64,000 nucleotides of DNA from Bacteroidota bacterium. GTDB taxonomy: Bacteria; Bacteroidota; Bacteroidia; Bacteroidales; JAADJA01. The translations under genes were made by a program, and so were the position numbers. The notes under the pieces were generated by a model. That model made no database searches and had not been told where the DNA came from. It saw only the letters and a list, made by a program, of their open reading frames with translations. The stretch covers positions 372,001-436,000 of the forward strand of contig JAHLKX010000004.1 of NCBI GenBank assembly GCA_020444515.1, given 5' to 3'. Of the stretch, positions 44,774 to 47,425 are shown in pieces. Each line of letters begins with the position of its first letter. Within the stretch, counting starts at the first letter, position 1.

Positions 44774-44851
44774 CACCCTCTTTATAAGACTACTATGATA
44801 TTTTGTAGGGGTGTTGTAGGGGTATCCCACTGGCACCTGTATGGTGTTTTT
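44772..44851 (+). terminator. Hairpin pair with terminator-like end after the TPR-HTH regulators
   Basis: AACACCC (44772-44778) can pair with GGGTGTT (44809-44815), and a second short hairpin GGCACC-TGTAT-GGTGTT (44832-44848) runs into TTTTTAT. Together they form a plausible but weak Rho-independent terminator. Confidence 0.45.
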
Positions 44852-44950
44852 ATGGGCAGTAATTCTTGTTGTATTAATTTTGTAATATAGAAATCCTTGT
44901 GTATAAGAATAACTTAGCCCACTTTTGCATCGCAAATCAATAATAACTCT

Positions 44951-45112
44951 ATGGAACGTCGCAAAGGAATTTCAGAACGTAATATAGATGATGAAATTCA
45001 ATACTACATCAAGAAAAAAAAGGAAGAAAACTCAGCACTTAAAAAACTATTGAATGCGCTTGAGACTTCAAAAAAAACCAATGATATCGATGACAAGACT
45101 AAGAGAAACTGA
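44951..45112 (+). CDS. Small hypothetical protein (53 aa) upstream of the ECF sigma gene
   Basis: An ORF of 53 codons starting MERRKGISERNIDDEIQYYI and ending DIDDKTKRN. It is highly charged and lysine-rich, with a predicted helix (KKKKEENSALKKLLNALE). It is 12 bases upstream of the sigma factor ATG, on the same strand, and TAATTTTG (44875-44882) lies in the leader. I do not recognise a family; a role in modulating the sigma factor is possible but only inferred from adjacency. Confidence 0.55.
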   Translation: MERRKGISERNIDDEIQYYIKKKKEENSALKKLLNALETSKKTNDIDDKTKRN

Positions 45113-45124
45113 TAATACGACATC

Positions 45125-45757
45125 ATGACTAATTCTACCGGTTTGTTGGAAAACGAAGTTTTTTTAAAAAATACATCACAATCTCGTGAACTTTTATACA
45201 AATATTTTGCACCGAGAATGTATGGAATTTGTCTGAGATTTGCTGGAAATAAGATGGAAGCCGATGATATATTACATGAGGCTTTTGTGAAAATTTTCAC
45301 AAAAATTAATAATTTCAGAAATGAAGGTTCTTTGGAAGGCTGGATAAGACGAACGATAATCAATACTGCAATTAATTTTTATCGGCGAAATTCAAGGTAC
45401 GCCCAAATGGTAGAGATTGATGGAATTGAAATCAGTTCAGAAAAACACAATCATATTTTTGATGCAATTACAAAAGAAGAACTACTTCAATTAATTCAAG
45501 AATTACCCAATGGTTATCGAACTGTTTTCAATCTCAATGTAATTGAGGGATATACGCACAAAGAAATTGGTGAGATGCTCAATATTTCGGATAATACTTC
45601 AAAGTCGCAATTAACCAGGGCTAGACTTGTGCTGCAAAAGAAGGTTGAAAATTTAATGCGCGAAAAGGTTAAGGTACCTTTTGACCAATTAACCATAGTC
45701 AAAGCAGATAAAACGAAAAAAATTGAGCCACAGAGAAAATATTTGCAAGCAGTATAA
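45125..45757 (+). CDS. ECF-type RNA polymerase sigma factor
   Basis: This 210-residue sigma-70 family protein has region 2 (RELLYKYFAPRMYGICLRFAG, then EADDILHEAFVKIF) and region 4 (LIQELPNGYRTVFNLNVIEGYTHKEIGEMLNISDNTSKSQLTRARLVL). A C-terminal extension of about 45 residues (REKVKVPFDQLTIVKADKTKKIEPQRK) follows region 4 and is basic. No anti-sigma gene follows, unlike the sigma gene at 38206. The 53-residue ORF immediately upstream is the only near partner. The tandem small RNA candidates start about 140 bases after its stop. Confidence 0.92.
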   Translation: MTNSTGLLENEVFLKNTSQSRELLYKYFAPRMYGICLRFAGNKMEADDILHEAFVKIFTKINNFRNEGSLEGWIRRTIINTAINFYRRNSRYAQMVEIDGIEISSEKHNHIFDAITKEELLQLIQELPNGYRTVFNLNVIEGYTHKEIGEMLNISDNTSKSQLTRARLVLQKKVENLMREKVKVPFDQLTIVKADKTKKIEPQRKYLQAV

Positions 45758-45900
45758 GATTTTAGTACTAAAAAAACGTTCTCATTAATATTGCAATATA
45801 AATAGCATAAGCATCCAATAATTGAAGACTGGATATCGTTATAAAATTGTGGTACGAATTTTGATAATAACTATTTACGTTCTTAAAGATATTGAAAAAA

Positions 45901-46019
45901 TAAAAGTAAGGTGTCTTTCCTTAATTGGTTTTGGTTAATAATTAGGTTTATTCTTTTCCTTTCTTTAAATAGCCTTACTTTTAAACCGGTGGTGTCAATG
46001 ACACCACCGGTTTTTTTTT
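45901..46019 (+). ncRNA. Candidate structured small RNA, copy 1
   Basis: An 11-bp outer stem TAAAAGTAAGG (45901-45911) / CCTTACTTTTA (45973-45983) encloses a loop with a 35-base segment (45924-45958, beginning ATTGGTTTTGGTTAATAATT) that is identical in copy 2 at 46180-46214. A strong terminator hairpin follows directly. The transcript may begin upstream; no promoter as good as that of copy 2 was found, only weak candidates, so read-through from the sigma gene is possible. I cannot name the family. Confidence 0.6.
45983..46019 (+). terminator. Rho-independent terminator of RNA copy 1
   Basis: AAACCGGTGGTGT-CAATG-ACACCACCGGTTT is a perfect 13-bp stem, followed by a run of T. Its 5' arm begins directly after the outer stem of the RNA candidate. 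Confidence 0.9.
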
Positions 46020-46073
46020 GAAATTTTGTTTATTTTTTTTCAACCGCAGTTTATAAATTTATTGAAAAAAAAA

Positions 46074-46103
46074 TTGACAGGAAAGGATATTTCACTATCT
46101 TTG
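46074..46103 (+). promoter_or_regulatory. Perfect Bacteroidota-type promoter of RNA copy 2
   Basis: TTG (46074-46076), exactly 19 bases, TATCTTTG (46096-46103) matches TTG-N19-TAnnTTTG. No protein gene follows for about 350 bases, so it must drive the RNA candidate at about 46110-46274. Confidence 0.8.
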
Positions 46104-46109
46104 TAATAA

Positions 46110-46274
46110 CATTTTAGGCAATTCTATTTTTCAAACAAGATATTCAAGAATACGAAAGTAGGGTGAACATCCTTCAAAAATTGGTTTTGGTTAATAATTA
46201 GGTTTATTCTTTTCTTCTTTTCATCACCTTACTTTTTAAACGAGTCGTAGTTATGCTGCGGCTCGTTTTTTTTT
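46110..46274 (+). ncRNA. Candidate structured small RNA, copy 2
   Basis: About 165 nt from the predicted start to the terminator. The outer stem AAAGTAGGGTGA (46155-46166) / TCACCTTACTTT (46224-46235) has 12 bp, with a single G-U pair at the position where copy 1 has A-U, a base change that keeps pairing. The 35-base loop segment 46180-46214 is identical to copy 1. A terminator with a different sequence but the same 13-bp stem follows directly. It has its own promoter, and no ORF of note lies within. Confidence 0.68.
46238..46274 (+). terminator. Rho-independent terminator of RNA copy 2
   Basis: AAACGAGTCGTAG-TTAT-GCTGCGGCTCGTTT is a 13-bp stem with two G-U pairs, followed by nine or more T. 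The stem length equals that of copy 1 although the sequence differs. Confidence 0.88.
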
Positions 46275-46295
46275 GCCTGTCTTTCAGTTGCCTTA

Positions 46296-46380
46296 GATCC
46301 AATGGATCATCCTAACAAGTGTAAATATTAGTTCACCGTTAAATTCGAAAGAAGTATTACTTTTATCGATCCATTGGATT
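46296..46380. repeat. Two GATCCA-N-TGGATC palindromes upstream of the EamA transporter gene
   Basis: GATCCAATGGATC (46296-46308) is a perfect 6-1-6 palindrome, and GATCCATTGGATT (46368-46380) is the same site with one change, 72 bases downstream. The pair lies 70-155 bases before the EamA ATG, and a TACTTTTA resembling a -7 element (46356-46363) sits between them. A paired operator is plausible; a chance origin is not excluded. Confidence 0.45.
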
Positions 46381-46450
46381 GAAGATTTTCTAATCAGTGG
46401 ATGGGTTATAAAAAGTCCTTTTTTTACAATCAGATAACATACATGATTTA

Positions 46451-47425
46451 ATGGCGGTAGAGAATTCAAGGATAAAGGGAATTTTGTTTGCATCGTTGAC
46501 AGCTTTTTTCTGGGGATTTTTAGCTATTGCGCTCAAAGTAGCCTCCGGTGTTTTGGACCCCCTCACCATAGTGTGGTTTCGTTTTCTTGTGGCATTTCTC
46601 ATCTTATTGGTCATCTTCGCCATCAAAAAACCAGAGTACCTTGTCATTTTAAAAAATCCACCACTATACATCATCGTTGCATCACTGGGCCTGGGAATAA
46701 ATTACCTTGCTTTTTTATACGGATTAAAACTAACTACTCCAGGCACAGCTCAAGTGATCATTCAATTGGGTCCAATTTTCTTAGGCATTGTAGGTTTAAT
46801 ATTTTTTAGAGAAAAAATCAGCAAACGTCAGGGTTTGGGTTTTATAGTTGCAGGTTCCGGAATGTATATTTTCTATCGTGAAAGTTTATCACAGATCGTA
46901 GCCAGAGAGGAACTCTTCAACATGGGTATTATATGGGTAGTTGTAGCGGCCATGGCCTGGGTTGTTTATGCTACTTTTCAAAAGATGCTGGTTAAAAAAT
47001 ACCCAACCCAGCAATTGAACCTTTTTTTGTTTGGTCTGCCAGTTTTACTGTTTGCCCCTTTTATAAATCCTTCTGGATTTTTTAATCTCTCACTGAATAA
47101 TTGGCTATTATTAATATACCTTGGCTTGAACACACTTATAGCCTATGGTAGTCTGGCATATGCATTTAAATACCTTGAAGCGAGTAAAGTTAGTATCATT
47201 GTAACCATGAATCCAATTATCACTTTTATCATTATGGGTATTTTAACCTATATGGAAGTGAAGTGGATTGACCCAGAAATCCTATCAACCCGAGGTTTAA
47301 TGGCTGCATTTTTAGTTTTATTGGGAGCCATCATGGCGATTGCAGTGGCCAAACCAGGAAAAAAGAAAGATATTCGGGCCTGGTTCAGATCAGGACACAA
47401 AAATGAATTAGACGACCAAGTATGA
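46451..47425 (+). CDS. EamA/DMT superfamily transporter
   Basis: This 324-residue inner membrane protein has ten predicted helices in two EamA repeats. The first starts ILFASLTAFFWGFLAIALKV and includes PLTIVWFRFLVAFLILL and KLTTPGTAQVIIQLGPIFLG. The second includes MGIIWVVVAAMAWVVYATFQK and LEASKVSIIVTMNPIITFII. It exports or exchanges metabolites such as amino acids or purines; the substrate is not readable. A lysine-rich cytoplasmic tail follows. It overlaps the next gene by four bases. The paired palindromes upstream may be its operator. Confidence 0.92.
   Translation: MAVENSRIKGILFASLTAFFWGFLAIALKVASGVLDPLTIVWFRFLVAFLILLVIFAIKKPEYLVILKNPPLYIIVASLGLGINYLAFLYGLKLTTPGTAQVIIQLGPIFLGIVGLIFFREKISKRQGLGFIVAGSGMYIFYRESLSQIVAREELFNMGIIWVVVAAMAWVVYATFQKMLVKKYPTQQLNLFLFGLPVLLFAPFINPSGFFNLSLNNWLLLIYLGLNTLIAYGSLAYAFKYLEASKVSIIVTMNPIITFIIMGILTYMEVKWIDPEILSTRGLMAAFLVLLGAIMAIAVAKPGKKKDIRAWFRSGHKNELDDQV

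What the first reader, a model, noticed from the sequence alone, without database searches (positions are those of the whole stretch)
45901..46274. Two tandem copies of a probably undescribed structured small RNA
Copy 1 (45901-46019) and copy 2 (about 46110-46274) share one architecture: an outer stem built on the AAAGTARGG / CCTTACTTT theme, an identical 35-base loop (45924-45958 and 46180-46214, beginning ATTGGTTTTGG), then a 13-bp terminator stem and a T-run. The stems keep pairing although bases change (A-U against G-U in the outer stem, wholly different terminator sequence with the same length). Copy 2 has a perfect TTG-N19-TATCTTTG promoter and no following ORF. This pattern of conserved loop and compensated stems is what a functional RNA family gives. 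A constant unpaired loop would suit base pairing with mRNAs or a protein, which is inference.
Basis: partly seen in the sequence, partly recalled or inferred. Interest (0 to 1): 0.85.

Follow-up and report, generated by a model that had tools for sequence, protein, structure and literature searches.

The report
Paired small RNAs beside sigma gene
Two neighbouring copies of a small RNA gene that matches no listed RNA family, found in a genus of uncultured Bacteroidales, carry the same largely unpaired stretch of sequence, probably to pair with and silence messenger RNAs.

Summary
Both copies exist where stated, with identical 36-base cores, closing stems, their own terminators and no Rfam match. 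They belong to a multicopy sRNA family: the core is exact at 30 places in 15 of 17 genomes of the genus and absent (up to 3 mismatches) from 43 other genomes of the order. A covariance model found diverged relatives in other families. Across 27 distinct copies a 32-base run is invariant while the rest averages 63% identity, and the closing stem covaries (5 of 9 pairs with compensatory changes; 0 of 500 shuffles).

New here: each of the 13 genomes with a type A copy (copy 1) has one directly behind an ECF sigma-factor gene; 9 of the 13 carry a sigma54-like TGGYAY-N5-TTGA before it. In two sister species the core is antisense (up to 24 contiguous nt, 14-16 nt before ATG) to leaders of part of a paralogous secreted-protein family. 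The closest known analogue, FopS of Bacteroides, fails as a membership.

Best explanation: trans-acting antisense sRNAs repressing translation. Target searches in this genome were negative, so its own targets are unknown. New variant of a known kind; interest about 0.5.

The parts
45850..45864 (+). Sigma54-like element TGGTACG-AATT-TTGA before copy 1 (GG-N10-GA); predicted promoter
   Evidence: TGGYAY-N5-TTGA lies between the sigma gene and copy A in 9 of 13 linked loci. RpoN and 12 strong sigma54-activator matches (of 15 in all) are in the genome. The -12 dinucleotide is GA, not the canonical GC.
45877..45898 (+). Leader element ACGTTCTTAAAGATATTGAAAA (GTTCTTT-like), role unknown
   Evidence: Seen by eye in the alignment; likeness to boxA is recalled, not tested.
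45902..45982 (+). Copy 1 (type A): outer 12-bp stem (45902-45913 with 45971-45982) enclosing the loop
45923..45958 (+). 36-nt core of copy 1; its first 32 nt are invariant in 27 distinct genus copies; predicted antisense seed
45983..46019 (+). Copy 1 intrinsic terminator
46074..46103 (+). Copy 2 promoter TTG-N19-TATCTTTG (Bacteroidota primary-sigma type)
   Evidence: an exact TANNTTTG lies within 110 nt upstream of the core in 8 of 12 B copies.
46154..46237 (+). Copy 2 (type B): outer stem (46154-46166 with 46224-46237) enclosing the loop
46179..46214 (+). 36-nt core of copy 2, identical to copy 1
46238..46274 (+). Copy 2 intrinsic terminator
45125..45757 (+). ECF-type RNA polymerase sigma factor gene, upstream of copy A
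   Evidence: Pfam Sigma70_r2 and r4_2; a homologue (60-81% protein identity) stands just before a type A copy in 13 of 13 genomes with a type A copy.
44951..45112 (+). Small lysine-rich ORF (53 aa) before the sigma gene, also visible in relatives
   Evidence: no Pfam match over its cut-off.

Best explanation
A multicopy family of trans-acting antisense small RNAs. Each transcript is about 120-165 nt. A stem of about 9-13 bp closes a large, weakly structured loop, and an intrinsic terminator ends the RNA. The loop presents an invariant 32-36 nt G/U-rich seed that pairs with A/C-rich leaders just upstream of the start codon of target mRNAs and blocks ribosome loading. Sister copies share the seed but differ in promoter, so one output can be driven by different inputs: copy A is tied to an ECF sigma-factor locus with a sigma54-like element, copy B has the primary-sigma type promoter. 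Shown by sequence: the family, invariance, stem covariation, synteny, and leader complementarity in two species. Inferred: transcription, pairing in vivo, direction of regulation, sigma54 control, and any target in this genome.
For: Family: the 29-mer is exact at 30 places, in 15 of 17 genus genomes, and has 0 matches at up to 3 mismatches in 43 other order genomes. A covariance model hits 10 of 393 order genomes: five of the genus; outside it G224 (72 bits), G061 (60 bits), a shorter FopS-like RNA in G402 (43 bits), and two near E 0.01 that look like chance. Longest invariant run 32 nt; mean identity outside it 0.63. Stem: 98.5% of cells paired, 5 of 9 pairs with double changes, 0 of 500 shuffles. 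Linkage: each of 13 genomes with a type A copy has one behind the ECF sigma gene (13 of 17 type A places; the other 4 lie elsewhere). Pairing: in G008 the 5 non-sRNA places within 1 mismatch of the complementary 20-mer (4 loci, two contig ends overlapping by 99 nt) are leaders of one paralogous secreted-protein family, 14-16 nt before ATG, a few nt before an AGGAGG. In G008 and G001, 6 of 10 leaders of the family examined pair at -25.0 to -28.9 kcal/mol. Expected number of such matches: 3.7e-4 per genome with leader composition, 1.4e-2 with whole-sample composition. These six leaders are 87-100% identical over 40 nt while their proteins are 51-94% identical. In the GTDB scan 11 of 12 non-sRNA matches are antisense, 10-17 nt before an ATG; 6 of these encode TonB receptors with SusC-like domains. 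The own genome encodes an RRM_1 protein, as in the FopS/RbpB system.
Against: No RNA data were available. In the window's own genome no near-full complementary leader exists. A sample of 333 initiation regions gives no clear enrichment over shuffled seeds (6 to 45 of 60 shuffles reach the core's count, by threshold), nor do the leaders of 29 TonB-receptor-type genes (58 of 200). The other four family leaders examined in G008 and G001 pair at only -14.7 to -16.6; the own orthologue at -10.6, and that of G005, which also has the sRNA, at -11.1; G002 and G006 carry the family (-10.5 to -20.6) but no sRNA was found in those incomplete genomes. A seed-plus-SD pattern gave 55 hits against 54 in the reversed control over 20 genomes. 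The six good leaders are paralogues or orthologues, not independent. The core is predicted only 61% unpaired on average. Invariance of every base over 32 nt is more than most pairing seeds need, so a protein contact could contribute.
Confidence: 0.68

Rival explanations
1. A protein-binding RNA: the invariant loop, with its UUGG/UUUUGG/UUAGG repeats, is the binding site of an RNA-binding protein (for example the RRM_1 protein) and titrates or delivers it.
For: All 32 positions are invariant in 27 copies, beyond what degenerate pairing needs. The genome encodes an RRM_1 protein, and RbpB of B. thetaiotaomicron binds FopS seeds (PMC11697453, section 8 read). Target searches in the own genome were negative.
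Against: Leader complementarity of up to 24 nt in G008 and G001 is not predicted by a decoy. Only 1-3 exact copies per genome, few sites for titration.
Confidence: 0.2
2. Copy A is mainly the processed 3' UTR and terminator of the sigma-factor mRNA, a 3'-UTR-derived sRNA with no promoter of its own.
For: In 13 genomes it lies co-directionally behind the sigma gene; the scan of the window shows no terminator-like site between the two. In 4 of 13 loci the sigma54-like element is missing.
Against: TGGYAY-N5-TTGA is kept in 9 of 13. Eight of 12 B copies and 2 of 4 dispersed A copies have an exact TANNTTTG upstream, so the RNA can be a separate gene.
Confidence: 0.3
3. A short toxic peptide (type I toxin) is encoded through the core.
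For: Type A has an open frame across the core from a GTG (read by eye), and BsrG appears among weak Rfam hits.
Against: No base change at all in 32 positions of 27 copies, so no synonymous change. Of three frames over 69 nt around the core, two contain a stop in all 27 copies and the third in 16 of 27. The GTG is absent in A_L015, A_L017 and B_L033.
Confidence: 0.02
4. A mobile or selfish repeat with no regulatory role.
For: Several dispersed copies and decayed ones exist.
Against: Terminators and stem letters change while the core does not; the sigma-linked place is shared by 13 genomes. Flanking repeats and transposases were not searched for.
Confidence: 0.05

Closest known systems
FopS sRNA family of Bacteroides (Rfam RF04319; PMC11697453)
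   Same: Multicopy sibling sRNAs in Bacteroidales; conserved G/U-rich seed containing GGUUAAUAA; antisense to leaders next to start codons; intrinsic terminator; primary-sigma promoter (B copies); an RRM_1 protein in the genome. L093 in a related family is intermediate: best Rfam hit FopS (E 0.0054, 30 bits, cut-off 56) and an alignment to this core that 0 of 1000 shuffles reach.
   Different: No FopS hit at E up to 10. Direct FopS-core similarity is not significant (92 of 1000 shuffles). About 120-165 nt rather than 65-70; the seed sits in a stem-closed loop, not in a free 5' stretch; linkage to a sigma gene; no SusC enrichment in this genome.
GibS (Rfam RF04182; PMC7366714)
   Same: Trans-acting Bacteroides sRNA that uses a conserved single-stranded seed against initiation regions (passages read).
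   Different: Seed in an unstructured 5' portion, no closing stem described; not among hits of the window copies at E up to 10.
Qrr sRNAs of Vibrio (recalled; only a search listing with abstract openings seen)
   Same: Several sister sRNAs sharing an invariant region of about 30 nt; sigma54 promoters (recalled).
   Different: Here only sigma-linked A copies have a sigma54-like element, with GA instead of GC at -12; no link to quorum sensing was looked for. Sequence relation was not tested beyond the Rfam scans.
LhrC family of Listeria (RF00616)
   Same: Multicopy sRNAs (search listing); highest-scoring sub-threshold Rfam hit (29 bits).
   Different: Far below the gathering score of 110.

Membership tests
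FopS (RF04319) | Match to the Rfam covariance model | tested here: not met
   No hit at gathering, and FopS is not in the list up to E 10.
FopS (RF04319) | Single-stranded 5' seed followed by a terminator, 65-70 nt | tested here: not met
   A covarying closing stem surrounds the core; predicted lengths 144 and 165 nt if the inferred starts hold.
FopS (RF04319) | R1' seed sequence | tested here: inconclusive
   GGTTAATAA is shared with the Rfam consensus, but 92 of 1000 shuffles score as well; L093 is intermediate.
FopS (RF04319) | Complementarity to SusC-type initiation regions in the same genome | tested here: not met
   29 leaders, of 37 matches of the SusC model in the own genome (6 over its cut-off): 58 of 200 shuffled seeds pair as well; for the six best, 60 of 200.
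FopS (RF04319) | Binding by RbpB | not testable with these tools
   An RRM_1 protein is encoded; binding unknown.
Multicopy (sibling) sRNA, general kind | Several copies with an invariant core and separate terminators | tested here: met
   30 exact places in 15 genomes, 1-3 each; 27 distinct copies aligned, 26 of them with a separate terminator hairpin by eye.
Qrr sRNAs | Sigma54-dependent promoter | tested here: inconclusive
   TGGYAY-N5-TTGA in 9 of 13 sigma-linked A copies. In the own genome TGGYACR-N4-TTGM has 16 hits against 7 in the reversed control; 7 of the 16 are intergenic, copy 1's own included. A 464-kb sample was too small to decide.
Qrr sRNAs | Control by a quorum-sensing phosphorelay | not tested
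   Not looked for.
LhrC (RF00616) | Rfam covariance model | tested here: not met
   29.1 bits against a gathering score of 110.
Type I toxin mRNA (BsrG RF01412) | Rfam model and a conserved small ORF | tested here: not met
   27.3 bits against 55; frames and start not conserved.

The most novel reading that the evidence does not exclude
A Bacteroidota counterpart of the Vibrio Qrr circuit: sister sRNAs with one invariant seed, of which the founding copy is wired to a sigma54 activator and an adjacent ECF sigma factor. The stem-closed loop would be an ancestral or alternative packaging of the FopS-type anti-leader seed, so that antisense to initiation leaders is an old regulatory theme of the Bacteroidales with lineage-specific targets.
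Probability: 0.25. Interest if true: 0.7.

Novelty: new variant of a known kind. Interest (0 to 1): 0.52.

Why it matters
As far as I recall, few sRNA families with a proposed target are known in Bacteroidota outside gut Bacteroides. This one is defined by comparative evidence alone and suggests that anti-leader seeds like those of FopS occur outside Bacteroidaceae in a different RNA architecture. It also couples an sRNA to an ECF sigma locus. The protein family in two sister species gives a directly testable RNA-target pair.

Tried and rejected
Own-genome targets: the complementary 20-mer (up to 3 mismatches) gave the sRNA copies and one other place; the complementary 16-mer (up to 2) gave 12 hits, 4 of them sRNA copies, against 15 for the reversed control. 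RNAduplex on 333 initiation regions from a 464-kb sample (20 stretches plus the window) gave no clear enrichment. Leaders of 29 of 37 SusC-model matches gave none. The seed-plus-SD pattern in 20 genomes did not exceed its control. The TonB-receptor leader matches in Alistipes and related records were first taken as conserved targets; as the own genome shows nothing of the kind, they are kept only as a hint that such leaders are common in the phylum. Peptide-coding, toxin and LhrC readings were rejected. A scan of viral contigs for the 20-mer was empty. Phage and plasmid searches gave only weak matches; of these, a Parabacteroides plasmid and a fecal phage stretch were looked at and not shown to be relatives. 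Covariance hits L094 and L095 look like chance; L102 and L104 look like decayed copies. In the alignment 30 exact places became 27 rows because 3 were identical over a 120-nt key. One of 18 target-family matches (L238) was left out of the leader comparison, and 8 of the 17 leaders shown were used for the identity table.

Full report
What is there. The window holds two tandem, co-directional small-RNA genes between an ECF sigma-factor gene (45125-45757) and an EamA transporter gene (46451-47425). Each has a closing stem of about 12-13 bp, a large loop containing an identical 36-nt core, and its own terminator; these are the only two terminator-like sites found in 45700-46320. Folding is far better than shuffles for copy 1 (z -6.4) and better for copy 2 (z -3.7). 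Copy 2 has an exact TTG-N19-TATCTTTG promoter. Nothing reaches an Rfam gathering threshold in the region; E-value hits are all sub-threshold.

It is a family. The window lies in a 5.0-Mb genome (G000); a third intact copy lies on contig C3 and a decayed one on C13. The loop 29-mer is exact at 30 places in 15 of 17 genomes of the genus; 43 other genomes of the order have no match at up to 3 mismatches. The public records that carry it are metagenome bins labelled mostly Bacteroidales bacterium. A covariance model built from 27 distinct copies and run over 393 genomes of the order found 10 with matches: 5 of the genus and 5 outside. Of the outside ones G224 (72 bits) and G061 (60 bits) are clear relatives with core and stem; G402 (43 bits) is a shorter RNA without an evident outer stem; two near E 0.01 look like chance. 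In the own genome the model also found a decayed copy (C11:314455) and an RNA with the same architecture but another loop (C10:558876).

Constraint. In the 27 copies a 32-nt run is invariant while the rest averages 63% pairwise identity. With the two outgroup members the nine aligned pairs of the outer stem are formed in 98.5% of cells; five of nine pairs have compensatory double changes (12 cells), reached by 0 of 500 shuffles, and slid controls are far lower. The genus alone gives three such pairs and 7 cells (8 of 500 and 0 of 500 shuffles). One copy (L033) has an unrelated stem sequence that runs straight into a T-run and no further terminator. So the stem is kept as a structure and the loop as a sequence.

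Context. Copies fall into type A and type B by the sequence next to the core. Thirteen genomes have a type A copy, and in each of them one lies directly and co-directionally behind a homologue of the window's ECF sigma gene (60-81% protein identity). That is 13 of 17 type A places; the other four, in G003, G005 (two) and G008, lie elsewhere. Type B follows in tandem in seven of the 13, and in an eighth (G008) as a copy split by a short insertion. Between sigma gene and A stem, TGGYAY-N5-TTGA occurs in 9 of 13. It has sigma54 spacing (GG-N10-GA) but GA rather than GC at -12; PMC12316311 (passages) gives the consensus as TGGCAC-N5-7-TTGCT. RpoN and 12 strong sigma54-activator matches (of 15) are in the genome. 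In the own genome TGGYACR-N4-TTGM has 16 hits against 7 for the reversed control; 7 of the 16 are intergenic, counting copy 1's own, six with TTGA and one with TTGC, and one lies 85 nt before an Hsp70 (dnaK-like) gene. In the 464-kb sample the same spacing gave 4 intergenic hits against 0-3 for other spacings, too few to decide. An exact TANNTTTG lies within 110 nt upstream of the core in 8 of 12 B copies and 2 of 4 dispersed A copies. Sigma54 control of copy A is therefore plausible but not shown.

What the loop pairs with. A 20-mer of the core was scanned over GTDB genomes: 33 stretches with 39 matches, of which 27 are the sRNA and 12 are not. Eleven of the 12 are on the opposite strand, with an ATG 10-17 nt downstream; six of these encode TonB receptors with SusC-like domains, four of them from Alistipes. 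One of the 11 is in the genus itself, in G008. A mismatch search over the 17 genus genomes then showed that the G008 places within 1 mismatch, other than sRNA copies, are leaders of one paralogous family of secreted proteins of about 100-116 aa: 5 places, 4 loci, since two contig ends overlap by 99 nt. Sister species G001 has two such leaders, one at 1 mismatch and one at 2. The paired stretch (up to 24 contiguous nt) ends a few nt before an AGGAGG. Six of the ten leaders of this family examined in G008 and G001 have duplex energies of -25.0 to -28.9 kcal/mol; the other four have -14.7 to -16.6. The expected number within 1 mismatch is 3.7e-4 per genome with leader composition (6.4e-3 over 17 genomes) and 1.4e-2 per genome with the composition of the G008 sample. 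Among the six good leaders the 40-nt leader is 87-100% identical while the proteins are 51-94% identical. One of these targets lies about 680 nt from, and convergent with, an sRNA copy.

Results against. The own genome has no such leader. Its one orthologue of the target family pairs at only -10.6 kcal/mol and that of G005 at -11.1, although both genomes have the sRNA. G002 and G006 have the family but no detected sRNA, with energies between -10.5 and -20.6. The family was found in only 6 of 17 genomes. A sample of 333 initiation regions and 29 TonB-receptor-type leaders show no clear enrichment. A seed-plus-Shine-Dalgarno pattern gave 55 hits against 54 reversed-control hits in 20 genomes. 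The core is predicted 61% unpaired on average. The pairing claim therefore rests on two related species and one gene family. Targets common to the genus, or a protein partner, remain open.

Closest known. FopS of B. thetaiotaomicron is a 14-member family of 65-70-nt sRNAs whose single-stranded seed blocks translation of SusC-type mRNAs, antagonised by the RRM protein RbpB (PMC11697453; abstract, section 8 and search passages read). The present RNA is not a FopS by the Rfam model or by architecture. Direct seed similarity is not significant (92 of 1000 shuffles). The G402 RNA (L093) is intermediate: best Rfam hit FopS at E 0.0054, below its cut-off; 0 of 1000 shuffles against this core, 11 of 1000 against FopS. 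The own genome encodes an RRM_1 protein, found by a motif scan of the held stretches and confirmed with Pfam. So it may well work like FopS, while membership fails. The Vibrio Qrr sRNAs are the nearest parallel for several sisters with one invariant region and sigma54 promoters (recalled; listing with abstract openings only).

In print. No paper in the held library contains the 20-nt core string as DNA or RNA. Searches for Bacteroidetes sRNA families, multicopy sRNAs, FopS/GibS and sigma54 with small RNAs list no title that describes it. Of the listed papers, PMC10994844 (one passage), PMC7366714 (passages) and PMC13370916 (abstract and outline) were looked at and concern other RNAs. Subscription papers and supplements were not searched.

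Verdict. A multicopy sRNA family not in Rfam, most likely an antisense translational regulator. It is a new variant of a known kind, with a testable partner in sister species and an unusual link to a sigma-factor locus.

Noticed in passing
L103 (G000:C10:558876-559013): An RNA of the same architecture (stem, loop, terminator, TATATTTG upstream) but with a quite different loop: perhaps a paralogue with another seed.
   Followed up: partly
L205 (G008:C193) and L209 (G001:C216): A short stretch present in two species carries an 18-of-20 complement of the core and is followed by a terminator-like hairpin with no clear ORF: a possible sponge RNA.
   Followed up: partly
L126 (G000:C1:345021-345035): TGGCACAATGATTGA lies 85 nt before an Hsp70 (dnaK-like) gene; PMC12316311 (passages) reports sigma54-driven chaperone genes in Bacteroidota.
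   Followed up: partly
window 44800-44950 and relatives: Repeated TGTATTGGT/TGTAGGGGT-like motifs upstream of the small ORF and sigma gene, also seen by eye in relatives; possible binding sites of a regulator.
   Followed up: no
window 44951-45112: 53-aa lysine-rich ORF before the sigma gene, visible in relatives; possibly a partner of the sigma factor.
   Followed up: partly
window 45877-45898: GTTCTTT-like element in leaders of A copies and also in several leaders of the target family; resembles boxA (recalled).
   Followed up: no
L043:684-856 (G008): The tandem B copy of G008 is split inside the core by an insertion of about 30 nt.
   Followed up: no
window 46292-46384: Inverted repeat of 17 nt (88% complementary) with a 59-nt gap between copy 2 and the EamA gene.
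   Followed up: no
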